NCBI GenBank assembly: GCA_963855995.1
Contig: OY979717.1
Span: forward strand, 25,315,746 to 25,379,745
Reading direction: 5' to 3'
DNA: 64,000 nt
Source: Muricea muricata
Lineage: Eukaryota; Cnidaria; Anthozoa; Malacalcyonacea; Plexauridae
Positions 7,588 to 16,560 of the stretch are shown in pieces. Made by a program: the position numbers and the translations under genes. Numbering within the stretch: the stretch's first letter is position 1; each line of letters begins with the position of its first letter. The notes below the pieces were generated by a model. The model made no database searches and was not told the origin of the DNA. It worked only from the letters and a program-made list of their open reading frames with translations.

Positions 7588-7743
7588 ATATATATATATA
7601 TATATATATATATATATATTTATATATATATATATATATATATATATATATATATATATATATATATATATATATATATATATATATATATATATATATA
7701 TATATATATATATATATATATATATATATATGTATGTATATAT
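7588..7743. repeat. (TA)n microsatellite, left flank of PLE 1
   Basis: About 150 bp of nearly pure TA with one TTTA interruption near 7620. It ends in TGTATGTATATATG, directly next to the PLE tail. Confidence 0.97.
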
Positions 7744-7854
7744 GTAACGTTGATTTTTCGGTCCAACGAATCTTGAACGACAGTGCTCAACACAAACAGG
7801 TGTGAAGCTGGAATATTTGTATATTTGAAAAAAATAAAAAGTTAAAAATTCTGT

Positions 7855-7886
7855 TACTCGAGTTTCACGCTGTACGCGATCATCAG
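7855..7886 (-). ncRNA. Hammerhead ribozyme-like core, PLE 1 left end
   Basis: On the minus strand: CTGATGA, a short stem-loop (TCGC/GCGT), GAAA, then the self-complementary ACTCGAGT and an A at the expected cleavage position. This matches the conserved hammerhead core C3UGANGA...GAAA with a minimal stem III. Very short stem III is known for ribozymes in Penelope-like elements, which are thought to work as dimers. Stem I pairing is weak here. Confidence 0.65.
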
Positions 7887-8355
7887 ACTAAAGTTAGCTA
7901 ATAAATACAGAGTCCTTTAACGTCTTGGTTCGATTAGCCTACAACCGATTATTAGGCTATTAAGATCTACATTGCCATATGTACAGTAATACCCATTAGG
8001 CTTATTTGTACAAAAATTTGTTAACGTGTCTACATTTTGATACCAACTCCGACCTTTTGTTCAACAGGAACCGTTTGTTCGCATTTAGAATAAACAATTT
8101 CTCCATCACGCAAAGGTTACATGATCTACTTCCGCTTGTGTATGGTGTGGCGTGACTAAGGATTGACCATTTAATGTTGTAATCTTCATAATTGTCTTTT
8201 AGTTTCCATATGTATTTTGACAATGTTGTTTTTGTCGAATATTTCCTGTGATTAAACGATAACATGTGGTTGTTGAATCTAGTTTTGAACGAGCCTTCCG
8301 TCATACCGATGTAATTCTTCTTTACAGTATGGTTGTTTGATGTGATAGTAGCCTG

Positions 8356-8511
8356 CACTGGATGAAAAATTGAATTTGCCCCAAATTTGCCTGGTGCAAA
8401 TATGTTGCAAATATGAAATTTGCAAAGCTTTGCAACCAGTGCAAAGGTGGCAATGGCCGAATTTGCCCGTTTTTGTGGCAAATTTGGGCAAATTCAATTT
8501 TTCATCCAGTG
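8356..8511. mobile_element. CACTG-ended MITE (CACTA/EnSpm-like) inside PLE 1
   Basis: A 156-bp element with ~35-bp terminal inverted repeats starting CACTGGATGAAAAATTGAA and rich in AAATTTGC palindromes. The intact counterpart at 9791-9830 shows the unoccupied sequence GCCTGGTAG. The filled site reads GCCTG-element-CTGGTAG, so CTG is duplicated. CACTG ends with a 3-bp TSD fit the CACTA/EnSpm superfamily. The ends can be shifted by one base, so the assignment is probable rather than certain. Confidence 0.75.
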
Positions 8512-8573
8512 CTGGTAGACTAGGCTCTTTTTACCACATGATCCCATCAACCGGCATTCATTTTGGTTTCTGA

Positions 8574-13285: not shown

Positions 13286-13363
13286 ATATTTCGTAGACCT
13301 GCTGTGCTACTCCGAGTTTCACGCTATAAAGCGATCGTCAGGCAACTGACAGATTTGGTGAAG
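13286..13363 (-). mobile_element. PLE 3: inverted 3'-end copy (short, tail-less)
   Basis: About 75 bp that reverse-complement 16363-16440: UTR plus hammerhead. It abuts a short (TA)n at 13268-13290 on the outside and the 5'-truncated PLE 3 body on the inside. Confidence 0.8.
13302..13353 (-). ncRNA. Hammerhead ribozyme-like motif, PLE 3 left end
   Basis: Minus strand: CTGT..GC, CTGACGA (13335-13341), CGCT/AGCG stem II, GAAA, ACTCGGAGT stem III, A, then GC ACAG. The core has C at the variable position 7, which hammerheads permit. Confidence 0.75.
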
Positions 13364-13375
13364 CTACGGCAAACC

Positions 13376-16363
13376 TGAGGCGGGTAAACTTCTTAGACAT
13401 AACACTTGACTTGACGGACGGCACATACAAACCGTACAGAAAACCTAATGACGAACCCTTCTACATCAACCGTCTTTCAAACCACCCACCTGCTATCGTA
13501 AAGCAGCTACCCTCATCCATCAACAAACGTATCAACAAACTCTCATGCAACAAACAAACATTTGACGCCTCATCCCAACTGTACAATGACGCTTTAAGAC
13601 AAAGCAACTTCGACGAAACCCTAACCTACGAGCAATTTACAAGCAACGAAAACAGCGACAGCAACAAAACGCAGCGACGAAACAGACAACGCAGCACTAT
13701 ATGGTACAATCCCCCTTACAGCAAGAACGTAAAAACAAACATAGGACAACGATTCCTCCAACTGATTGACCAACACTTCCCCCCTTCTAACAAACTACAC
13801 AAAATCTTTAATCGACACAACGTGCGAATTAGTTACAGTTGCCTAGACAACATGAGCTCGTTCATAAACAGACACAACAGAAAAATACTAAACAAACACA
13901 CGAGACAAACGAACGTAAGCAACACAGAGAACACGCGACAGTGCAACTGCAGACAACCCAACAAATGCCCGGCCGAAGGTAAATGCCTCACAAAAAGCGT
14001 GGTATATCAAGCCGAAGTTACAGCACATAACCAACCTCGAACCCAGGCTCTTTTACCTACGCCCGGCGCTCCGGCAAAGACCCTGGTTGGAGCTGGTCAC
14101 GTGAACACCCAGATTTTAGGGGTAAATCGAATTAGCGCCTTTTTGCTACTAAGGGAGGAGTGGTAGAGGAGCGTACGCGTTTCTTGTGTTTAAGAATTAC
14201 AACATTTGTTAAATAAAAATAATTTGCAGCAAGAAATTGGGGAGAAAATTAATCAAAAATTGTATTTTTGCTGTTGTGATTTCTTTCTGTTTATGAAACG
14301 CGTATTGGGCTACACTTAGAGCACAAATGTGGATCAGATTTCAACTTGTCATACATCGCAGCAATTATGTCGAGGAGAAAATACTTCTATAATCTTTGGA
14401 TTCGTGTTGACGGCGTTTGCAGTTTGTTTCTTAAACTATATACGATAGGAGATACTAAAGGACGCCGATCCGGGATTGTTAGTGCGAAATACAGAGAAAC
14501 AAGTCCGCGCAAAACGACGGCAAAATGTGTAAACAATGTTCCGAGTTGACTGAGACGTATCGCGATGAGGAAATACATCCACGTTATCAAGTTTGCTATA
14601 ACGACGACAAGAACAATTCAAAGATAAGTCAAAGACTCGTCTATACGCGTATATTTAACAATACAATTCCCAAATTGATACGATATGGCTGCTAGTATGC
14701 GCTGTATCTGTGACACATGTAATACACATAAAACATTAGACAATACAAAGCATATAATATATACTGATTTTGATAGATATCCTTTTATATAGAGGATTAC
14801 GGTTCTTGAACATTTTTAAAAGAAGTATATGTCTTGAAGTAATAATGATTTTTTAAACATGTTGCGAAAAATTAGTGTGTAACGTATGTTTAATACATTG
14901 TAATTGTTTTTGTATTCATAATGTAAAATTTCTGTGCATTGTTAAGGCCCTGTTTAGGGTAGGTATGCAAGTCGCTCCTTTTATTCTAAAGATACAGAAT
15001 ATGTTGTTTCTTACAAACAATGCTGTGTCCTTCTTTTGACATCTGATTATTATTTTCCCCTCATATGTATGAGCTGTCGCAATTACGACAAAGTTTATGT
15101 CACCAATTCAAAATTTTCCCTAACAGGGCCTTACAATTTCTTACTTCATATGAATGCATTGCTGTTATTATAATACAAATATTGTATATAAAATAACAAT
15201 GAACAATGTGCAAATTTCTGTTGCAAAAGGAGATATTTCACTGCATGGGGCTTATGTTGGACATTCACCTTTTTCGTATTAAATTAAATTTTGTAGAAAT
15301 TCTTCTGTATCTCTCCCTTTTACATCCCAGTCAGACTCCCAGTATTCAAGTTGGACTGTGAACATTGAAGATAAGTAACCCAGTAGTTATTGCAAAACAG
15401 TTTTACATGTTTTTGCGTGATTAGGAGTTTCATAAAGTGAAAATGTTTATAAATTTGCTTATCTATTGTGCCCTGAGCAACACTGACATTTTGAAGTTCG
15501 CAGATGCTTTGCGTTACAGGTACACTGCATTATACTTGCATCGGTGCAAACGTTAACATTCTTAATGGAGTGTTCAGAGGTTATGTAATATTTTAGGCAT
15601 AAATTGTATGTATCAGCGAATAAAGCAATTGTGAGAGCCCGTTTTAATGCCTTTTAAAATAAACACGACAACGAAACACCTATAAACTTAGGATCGCTTG
15701 ACAGTTGCCAACACCCAACATAGTTTACTTATCGACACTCGTGCTTTCGGAATTCAAACGCTAACAATAATAAATGAAATGAAACACACAAAATAGACAA
15801 AAATCGATAATTTTAGATCAAAAAGTTTATATTGTCGTTCATAGCAATTAAATCTCACTCCTTGCATTTGAAATGTATCACTTGTATGTGGAAGCATGTA
15901 ATTTGATACTTTCCCCACCCTATAAAGTAACGGATTTTTTAAAGAGTCACGTGACCAGCTCCAACCAGGGTCTTTGCCGGAGCGCCGGGCGTAGGTAAAA
16001 GAGCCTGGGTACGAGGTTGGCACATAACAAGCCCGTAAAGTACATTGGAGTCACCGCCGATGACTTCAAAACAAGATTTAGAAACCACGCCAAATCACTG
16101 GCTAACAAGAAGTACTCAACGGAAACGGAGCTATCAAAGCATGTATGGGAACTGAAGGCAGCGAAAAAGCCATTCACCATCAAATGGTCGTTACTTAAGA
16201 AGGTTCCTGCCTACAAAGCTGGTTCCAGAAGATGTAACTTATGCCTTGAGGAAAAACTGACCATCATGAAAAACAAAGATAATGCCTTACTGAACAAACG
16301 AACCGAACTATTTACCAAGTGTAGACGTGTAACGCGATACCTAGTATCAAACTGTAAATAGAG
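13376..16363 (+). pseudogene. PLE 3 body, split by a 1,988-bp DNA transposon
   Basis: The reading frame begins in the RT C-terminus (FLDITLDLTDGTYKPYRKPND). It continues through STIWYNPPYSKNVKTNIG and the cysteine cluster CNCRQPNKCPAEGKC to VVYQAEVTAHN at 14031. It resumes at 16020 with AHNKPVKYIGVTADDFKTRF and runs through CLEEKL to VSNCK, stop at 16361. Removing the insertion and one TSD restores a continuous frame. The catalytic RT palm is missing (5' truncation). It is a close relative of PLE 2. Confidence 0.85.
14032..16019. mobile_element. TIR transposon (hAT- or P-like, TSD GCACATAAC) inside PLE 3
   Basis: 73-bp terminal inverted repeats (14032-14104 and 15947-16019) beginning CAACCTCG differ at one base. 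The flanks GCACATAAC (14023-14031 and 16020-16028) are duplicated. Depending on where the ends are drawn the TSD is 7-9 bp, which fits the 8-bp TSD of hAT or P elements. The 1.8-kb interior has only short ORFs without recognised motifs, so this is probably a non-autonomous copy. The CAACCTCG..CCCAGG ends resemble a repeat I associate with cnidarian genomes. Confidence 0.85.
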
Positions 16364-16379
16364 AGTAGCTTCACCAGAT

Positions 16380-16430
16380 CTGTCAGTTGCCTGACGATCG
16401 CTTTATAGCGTGAAACTCGGAGTAGCACAG
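16380..16430 (+). ncRNA. Hammerhead ribozyme-like motif, PLE 3 right end
   Basis: CTGTC-AGTT-GC, CTGACGA at 16391-16397, stem II CGCT/AGCG, GAAA at 16412-16415, ACTCGGAGT, A at 16424, then GCACAG. Stem I pairs GC/GC and CTGT/ACAG. It is the sense partner of 13302-13353. Confidence 0.75.
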
Positions 16431-16560
16431 CAGGTCTACGAAATAAATAAATATATCCGCTCTACCAGTAATGGTATTGAGCGCTCTAAAATCATTGACA
16501 AGTCTTGTAACCAATCTGGTACAGTTAATTCTTGGAATATATATATAATACAAATATATT
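16431..16560 (+). mobile_element. PLE 3 3' tail, homologous to PLE 2 tail
   Basis: The segment CCGCTCTACCAGTAATGG...GAGCGCTCTA aligns with 13192-13268 at roughly three-quarters identity and ends in a short (TA)n. It marks the true 3' end of the element family beyond the ribozyme. Confidence 0.7.

What the first reader, a model, noticed from the sequence alone, without database searches (positions are those of the whole stretch)
7741..16545. PLEs inserted in (TA)n as outward-facing inverted 3' ends: a possible twin-priming signature
Three independent elements share one layout: a 5'-truncated body joined to an inverted partial copy of its own 3' end, both 3' ends pointing outward, mostly next to (TA)n. 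The inverted copy length differs (about 0.7 kb, 0.24 kb, 0.08 kb), so these are separate events. (TA)n is self-complementary: nicks on either strand leave the same 3' sequence, so both could prime cDNA from the same RNA tail. Inverted and partial terminal repeats are known for Penelope-like elements. The link to the palindromic target and to dual priming is my inference.
Basis: partly seen in the sequence, partly recalled or inferred. Interest (0 to 1): 0.85.

Follow-up and report, generated by a model that had tools for sequence, protein, structure and literature searches.

The report
Two-ended Penelope insertions in TA repeats
In this animal genome, Penelope-type jumping genes often sit in TA repeats as two copies joined head to head, mostly with one long and one short outer end, which suggests that both strands of the cut DNA start copying the element's RNA and the two copies are then glued together.

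Summary
The window holds Penelope-like elements (PLEs: hammerhead ribozyme, C-terminal GIY-YIG nuclease) whose inverted 3' ends point outward into (TA)n. In the host genome (453 Mb), 68 of 79 neighbouring ribozyme pairs face outward (245 of 422 sites listed), though 106 of 169 clusters hold one intact ribozyme. Of 32 fetched loci of one family and its relatives, 23 are head-to-head.

New here: outer ends are of two kinds, flanking a conserved bulged hairpin: T (tailed) includes it, U stops before it. Insertions carry one of each: 49 T/U, 3 T/T, 0 U/U of 52 strictly classified pairs, and 15 of 15 in a separate set. Arm lengths vary. In three young copies both arms are identical where other copies differ; several older copies do not show this. 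Inner junctions show excess microhomology or short inserts.

Best explanation: both strands of the TA target prime reverse transcription at two start sites on the element RNA, and end joining links the two cDNAs. Head-to-head PLEs, tails and two-strand priming in vitro are published; the T/U rule and junctions argue against published self-priming for long copies. Dual priming is supported; L1-type twin priming is not.

The parts
7744..8572 (-). Element A, inverted arm with tailed (T) 3' end; contains a 156-bp foldback (MITE-like) insertion at 8356-8511
8573..10336 (+). Element A, 5'-truncated body with untailed (U) 3' end
   Evidence: coding pieces
7785..7808 (-). Element A tail hairpin (outer stem, 2-nt bulge, upper stem)
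11494..11625 (-). Element E, tailed arm with hammerhead core 11600-11623
11640..11690 (+). Element E, untailed arm
11779..12948 (-). Element B, long arm (coding end with GIY-YIG, ribozyme) with untailed (U) end
12949..13266 (+). Element B, short inverted arm with tailed (T) end
13192..13217 (+). Element B tail hairpin CGCTC..GAGCG
13289..13370 (-). Element C, short inverted arm with untailed (U) end
13371..16540 (+). Element C, body with tailed (T) end; interrupted by a DNA transposon at 14032-16019
16458..16483 (+). Element C tail hairpin
7862..7886 (-). Hammerhead ribozyme core, A left
10277..10301 (+). Hammerhead ribozyme core, A right
11813..11838 (-). Hammerhead ribozyme core, B left
13122..13147 (+). 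Hammerhead ribozyme core, B right
13316..13341 (-). Hammerhead ribozyme core, C left
16391..16416 (+). Hammerhead ribozyme core, C right
7588..7743 (.). (TA)n array abutting A, tailed end
10337..10603 (.). (TA)n array abutting A, untailed end
11350..11493 (.). (TA)n array between D and E
11691..11776 (.). (TA)n array between E and B
13267..13288 (.). (TA)n array between B and C
56088..58905 (.). E2 (approximate limits), older E-family copy with the same tailed/untailed ends, split by a ~2.6-kb insertion with terminal inverted repeats; not in a TA array
10604..11349 (-). D, 5'-truncated piece of another PLE-like family without an inverted arm (its 3' limit is uncertain, 10604-10870; its ribozyme-like core does not pair)
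35341..35729 (+). F, GIY-YIG fragment between two (TA)n arrays, no ribozyme or inverted arm

Best explanation
These are Penelope-like retroelements that insert into (TA)n by two-sided target-primed reverse transcription. The GIY-YIG nuclease opens both strands of a TA repeat. Each 3' end primes one cDNA on the element RNA at one of two start sites that flank a conserved bulged hairpin: T, 3' of the hairpin (this end carries the tail), and U, in the AU-rich linker just 5' of it. The two antisense cDNAs grow toward the RNA 5' end, stop at unrelated positions, and their free 3' ends are joined head to head by microhomology or polymerase-theta-like end joining; fill-in completes the second strand. 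Each start site is normally used once per insertion, most simply because both cDNAs use one RNA molecule or one asymmetric protein dimer. Shown by sequence: the layout, two end types, the T/U rule, variable arm lengths, junction microhomology, arm identity in three young copies. Inferred: nicking of both strands, the joining pathway, a single RNA, the hairpin as the protein-binding element.
For: Outward pairs 68 of 79. T/U 49, T/T 3, U/U 0 of 52 strictly classified pairs out of 57 read (P about 5e-12 against independent choice); 15 of 15 two-ended B copies, the window's included. Distance from ribozyme to TA is bimodal. In the 16 junctions the arm end positions differ by 144-1236 nt (positions), so neither a unit moving as a whole nor simple snap-back explains them. 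Nine junctions without insert: mean microhomology 3.2 nt against 0.62 expected, 0 of 20,000 resamples as high; seven with inserts of 4-37 nt, two of which (L013, L015) repeat nearby sequence by eye. Arms of L010 0/1763, L011 0/1122, L013 0/568 differences, nearest other copies 6, 2 and 1; L019 7 against 21. The hairpin keeps its shape while its upper stem changes sequence between families. 108 of 114 ends reach (TA)6 within 150 nt, window null 3.3%. Published: the anole PLE cleaves and extends both strands and starts at two adjacent internal sites that match the genomic tail (PMC11167929).
Against: Three T/T pairs in the census (one lies in a cluster whose third ribozyme is U, one in a cluster whose third is also T) and one more in L038. 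106 of 169 ribozyme clusters are single; 9 of 32 B loci and up to 11 of 32 C loci show no second arm, nor do D and F. Nine of 57 pairs are minimal and hairpin-like, and E/E2 are hairpins, so snap-back may also occur. Of 16 loci with comparable arms, the arms are closer to each other than to any other copy in 7, tied at zero in 3 and not closer in 6; age may explain the 6, gene conversion could explain the 7. If two RTs followed each other on one RNA, the U arm should be longer: 12 of 14 in B but 4 of 8 in C (by hand), inconclusive. In PAc no difference of start site between strands was seen in vitro (PMC11167929), so the T/U rule is not predicted by those data. No biochemical data here.
Confidence: 0.8

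Rival explanations
1. Self-priming: one cDNA is started at the target, its 3' end snaps back or jumps to an antisense template and is copied into the inverted arm (published proposal for bdelloid Penelope).
For: Proposed from palindromes at inverted junctions in Adineta vaga (PMC3846280 passages). E/E2 and 9 of 57 minimal pairs here are hairpin-like.
Against: In the 16 junctions the two arms stop 144-1236 nt apart, not at a hairpin (positions). A copied arm has no evident reason to end at T or U and abut TA, yet nearly all outer ends do.
Confidence: 0.12
2. The head-to-head unit, with one T and one U end, moves as a whole (like a terminal-inverted-repeat element or through a read-through RNA).
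For: Some loci share a junction: L024 and L027, L075-L077; E and E2 are alike.
Against: The other B junctions that could be placed each have their own pair of arm end positions; in 7 of 16 loci the arms are closer to each other than to any other copy.
Confidence: 0.04
3. DNA-level foldback: (TA)n hairpins or broken ends near an ordinary single-ended PLE produce inverted duplications, or the assembly does.
For: (TA)n is self-complementary; inverted duplications can arise at breaks (papers seen only in the listing).
Against: A duplicated end would be the same kind at both sides (T/T or U/U), but 49 of 52 are T/U. Diverged arms and many different junctions speak against a simple assembly fault.
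Confidence: 0.04

Closest known systems
Poseidon/Penelope clade, PAc of Anolis carolinensis (PMC11167929; parts 1-3 of 4 of the full text read)
   Same: GIY-YIG EN after RT, hammerhead ribozyme, AT-rich target, tail bounded by two RT start sites, cleavage and extension of both strands in vitro.
   Different: PAc is organised in direct tandem repeats with pLTRs; here neighbours are head-to-head (68 of 79) and direct pairs are rare (4 of 79). In the parts read, two-strand priming is not used to explain inverted copies, no one-of-each rule is given, and start sites do not differ between strands. Tails here are about 50-90 nt (by eye) against 30-40 bp there.
Penelope families of Adineta vaga, e.g. 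Pen2a_Av (PMC3846280; passages read)
   Same: Inverted pLTR, head-to-head arrangement called the most frequent, an optional tail on one of the inverted pLTRs, AT-rich targets, palindromic pLTR ends.
   Different: There a direct pLTR pair also exists, 8-10 bp target duplications are seen, and self-priming on an antisense template is proposed. Here the target is mostly (TA)n and the arm ends are unequal.
L1 twin priming (recalled)
   Same: Two primers on one RNA, inverted segment, joining of two cDNAs.
   Different: In L1 one cDNA starts internally, so only one end is a 3' end. Here both ends are 3' ends at fixed start sites.

Membership tests
Penelope-like elements, GIY-YIG-containing (Penelope/Poseidon type) | GIY-YIG endonuclease at the C-terminus, after the RT | tested here: met
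Penelope-like elements, GIY-YIG-containing (Penelope/Poseidon type) | Reverse transcriptase related to telomerase RT | tested here: inconclusive
Penelope-like elements, GIY-YIG-containing (Penelope/Poseidon type) | Hammerhead ribozyme with short stem III in the terminal repeat | tested here: met
   Core CTGANGA..GAAA with 3 stem III pairs and a GUA site in both ends of A, B and C and in the E tailed arm; stem I 2-6 contiguous pairs. My script's strict stem II count was 0 except in A right (4), because it starts at a T-T pair; inner CGC/GCG pairs are by eye. D's core does not pair. 422 genomic matches, 0 in the reversed control. Rfam hammerhead models gave no match.
Penelope-like elements, GIY-YIG-containing (Penelope/Poseidon type) | Inverted partial terminal repeats and an optional tail | tested here: met
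Penelope-like elements, GIY-YIG-containing (Penelope/Poseidon type) | Direct (tandem) pLTR arrangement | tested here: not met
   Neighbouring ribozymes in direct orientation: 4 of 79. Often described but not universal; some published families are bounded by inverted pLTRs (PMC3846280 passages).
L1-type twin priming | One 3' end, inverted 5' segment between it and the target (recalled) | tested here: not met
   Both outer ends are 3' ends carrying the ribozyme.

The most novel reading that the evidence does not exclude
A single PLE RNA carries two start sites, one on each side of a protein-bound hairpin, and each is primed by one strand of the same (TA)n target. The element thus integrates through two cDNAs on one template and host end joining, with no dedicated second-strand synthesis and no target duplication needed: a two-sided variant of target-primed reverse transcription that would explain the inverted repeats and tails of PLEs in general.
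Probability: 0.45. Interest if true: 0.85.

Novelty: new variant of a known kind. Interest (0 to 1): 0.72.

Why it matters
How PLEs, relatives of telomerase (published kinship), complete integration and why they carry inverted ends is open in the papers read. The genome gives a quantitative rule (one T and one U end) that an in vitro system of the published kind could test directly, and it turns a descriptive oddity into a mechanism: both target strands prime, and the host joins the two cDNAs.

Tried and rejected
PLE relatives were sought in viral contigs and genome contigs: none confirmed. Rfam at gathering score and at E up to 10 on 7500-16700: no hammerhead match; the ribozyme rests on core and pairing. 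The structure model of the isolated EN domain was too poor (mean pLDDT 48.7) and was not searched. Foldseek gave no match at E 0.001 for the longer model.

The lead/trail idea (U arm longer because that RT is ahead on the same RNA) was tested and is inconclusive: B 12 of 14, C 4 of 8, 17 of 23 with A (by hand; P). L039 (arms equal) was left out, as were C pairs whose coordinates do not decide. TA array length at T and U ends showed no clear asymmetry (medians 126 and 144, 13 ends each). Junction rows left out: L010 (source of the reference), L024, L027, L033 (reference too short), L017, L032, L038, L039 (fragmentary or another subfamily). The A-family search was used only to see that the family is small; the E family was not searched genome-wide because one search did not complete.
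Full report
WHAT IS IN THE WINDOW. The stretch 7588-16550 holds five PLE pieces lying one after another, separated mostly by (TA)n arrays: A, D, E, B and C. A, B, C and E each consist of two arms whose 3' ends point outward. Arms: A 582 columns with 18 mismatches, B 233 of 233, C 78 of 79, E 46 of 48; the differing divergence fits separate events of different age. Both 3' ends of A, B and C, and the tailed arm of E, carry a hammerhead core CTGANGA..GAAAC with stem III and a GUA cleavage site. 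Rfam gave no hammerhead match. D and F are PLE-like pieces without an inverted arm; E2 (about 56088-58905) is an older relative of E with the same layout, split by another transposon. All 7 TA arrays of 16 nt or more in the window touch a PLE piece.

THE OVERLOOKED ASYMMETRY. Read outward from the ribozyme, the two ends of one element are not alike. One stops in an AU-rich linker and runs into (TA)n: U. The other continues roughly 50-90 nt further: T. The tails of A, B, C and E contain the same kind of bulged hairpin (GCTC..GAGC outer stem, 2-nt bulge, upper stem; weakest in E). U ends stop just 5' of it; T ends lie roughly 20-50 nt 3' of it (by eye). A, B, C, E and E2 each have one T and one U end.

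GENOME-WIDE TEST. The host genome has 453 Mb in 74 contigs. With B as query, 32 loci were fetched with flanks; the search scored only 40 of 679 candidates. Mapped on a contiguous arm of locus L010, 23 of 32 show a minus arm followed by a plus arm, and 9 are one-armed or fragments (my count from the table; L037 and L038 belong to a relative about 72% alike). All 14 loci with both ends readable, plus the window copy, have one T end (..TTTCTGG|ATTATATA in most; in L027 and L029 it stops 5 and 18 nt earlier) and one U end; L039 also holds a stray second tail piece, and the U end of L019 and the T end of L027 are not in TA. Other families caught in the same loci add five T/U pairs and one T/T (L015, L020, L034, L038; read by eye).

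A broader census used the ribozyme pattern CTGAYGATCGCN{2,10}GCGTGAAACTC: 422 matches, none with the reversed control. Listings stop at 100 places; the general pattern was listed only to C1:97.8 Mb, beyond that two exact versions only; together 245 distinct sites. Neighbours within 8 kb form 79 pairs: 68 outward, 7 facing, 4 direct on the plus strand, 0 direct on the minus strand. Of 169 clusters 106 hold a single ribozyme. At least three of these singletons (C1:10091475, C7:8947340, C2:5470067) are in fact two-armed by the C-family coordinates, so loss of one ribozyme explains some. In the C family at least 21 of 32 loci found are two-armed; the rest are undetermined, as only 40 of 323 candidates were scored (hand tally).

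For 57 outward pairs not fetched before, both outer ends were read. The distance from ribozyme to first (TA)6 is bimodal: 4-62 nt, then one at 74, then 96-149 nt, and 6 of 114 ends have none. By distance alone 48 of 57 pairs are one short plus one long, 2 are long-long, none short-short, and 7 hold an end in neither class. By strict hairpin reading: 49 T/U, 3 T/T, 0 U/U, and 5 with one unclassified end; four of the five have the TA at tail distance (100-130 nt), the fifth (L133) joins another PLE. The strict U class requires TA within 75 nt, so the criteria are not independent of TA, but neither uses the partner end. The binomial P is 5e-12, or 2e-11 when L075-L077, which share a junction, count once. 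T lies left 25 times and right 28 times, 4 undecided. Of the three T/T pairs, one (L068/L069) belongs to a cluster whose third ribozyme is U; the two others lie within 20 kb of each other on C5, one with a third T. Eighteen sampled singletons are 8 T, 7 U, 3 unclassified.

TARGET. 108 of 114 ends reach (TA)6 within 150 nt. Random positions of the window do so in 3.3% of cases, and in 0.16% outside its PLE stretches. The pairs were chosen by ribozyme only, not by TA. The null comes from this one window, not from the whole genome.

MECHANISM. (i) Both arms start at RT start sites: in the anole PLE the genomic ends coincide with two RT start sites and both strands are cleaved and extended in vitro, with no difference of start site between strands (PMC11167929). 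(ii) Arm lengths are unrelated: in the 16 junctions the two arms stop 144-1236 nt apart (positions). This does not fit snap-back self-priming, proposed for bdelloid Penelope from palindromic junctions (PMC3846280), except for minimal copies: 9 of 57 pairs have ribozyme cores starting 32-60 nt apart, with arms that mostly stop inside stem I, and E/E2 are hairpins. (iii) Of the 16 junctions, 9 have no insert and a mean microhomology of 3.2 nt against 0.62 expected; 7 have inserts of 4-37 nt, two of which repeat nearby sequence by eye. This looks like polymerase-theta-type joining of two 3' ends (inference). (iv) Arms of L010, L011 and L013 are identical over 1763, 1122 and 568 nt while the nearest other copies differ by 6, 2 and 1; L019 differs by 7 between arms and by 21 or more from others, with 14 private variants shared by its arms. 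Over the 16 loci with comparable arms: closer to each other than to any other copy in 7 (L010, L011, L013, L014, L015, L019, L036), tied at zero in 3 (window B, L009, L012), not closer in 6 (L016, L018, L020, L024, L027, L029). So the signal is clear in a few young copies only; gene conversion is an alternative. (v) That one RNA molecule serves both cDNAs is the simplest reading of the T/U rule but is not proved; arm lengths do not settle it (B 12 of 14 with the longer U arm, C 4 of 8).

WHAT IS KNOWN. Inverted pLTRs, head-to-head layout, optional tail and AT-rich targets are published (PMC3846280 passages; PMC8969392 passage). Two-strand extension and two start sites are published (PMC11167929). 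Searches for PLE papers on inverted ends, twin priming, TA targets and end joining listed no title or abstract stating the one-of-each rule or two-strand priming as the origin of inverted ends; of the listed papers I read only the four named. Key older papers and Craig 2021 are not held, so this absence is weak.

Noticed in passing
1-2684 and 4234-6917: A 2.7-kb inverted repeat, 99.8% identical, with a 1.55-kb spacer and its left end cut by the window start; no PLE match there.
   Followed up: no
L055, L062, L065, L080, L085, L103, L115, L120, L127: Minimal insertions: two ribozymes head to head with 4-32 nt between the cores, arms mostly ending inside the 5' strand of stem I, as if the RNA template ended at the ribozyme's 5' edge.
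   Followed up: partly
14032-16019: A ~2.0-kb DNA transposon nested in element C with 74-bp terminal inverted repeats 98.6% alike and an apparent 9-bp target duplication GCACATAAC (read by eye).
   Followed up: no
8356-8511: A 156-bp foldback element inside the inverted arm of A; resembles the Rfam family MIR7807 below its threshold.
   Followed up: no
56128-58745: A ~2.6-kb insertion with terminal inverted repeats starting CAGGGCGC inside E2.
   Followed up: no
7588-16550: Five PLE pieces of several families lie one after another with little but TA repeats between most of them: one TA locus seems to be hit repeatedly.
   Followed up: partly
35089-35340: The TA array left of F contains two short GC-rich motifs (CTGAGGCGTGAGGC) whose start mirrors the left flank (CTCAGATATA), perhaps foldback synthesis inside the array (by eye).
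   Followed up: no
L133: An apparent untailed end of C type joined not to TA but to what reads by eye as coding sequence of another GIY-YIG element.
   Followed up: no
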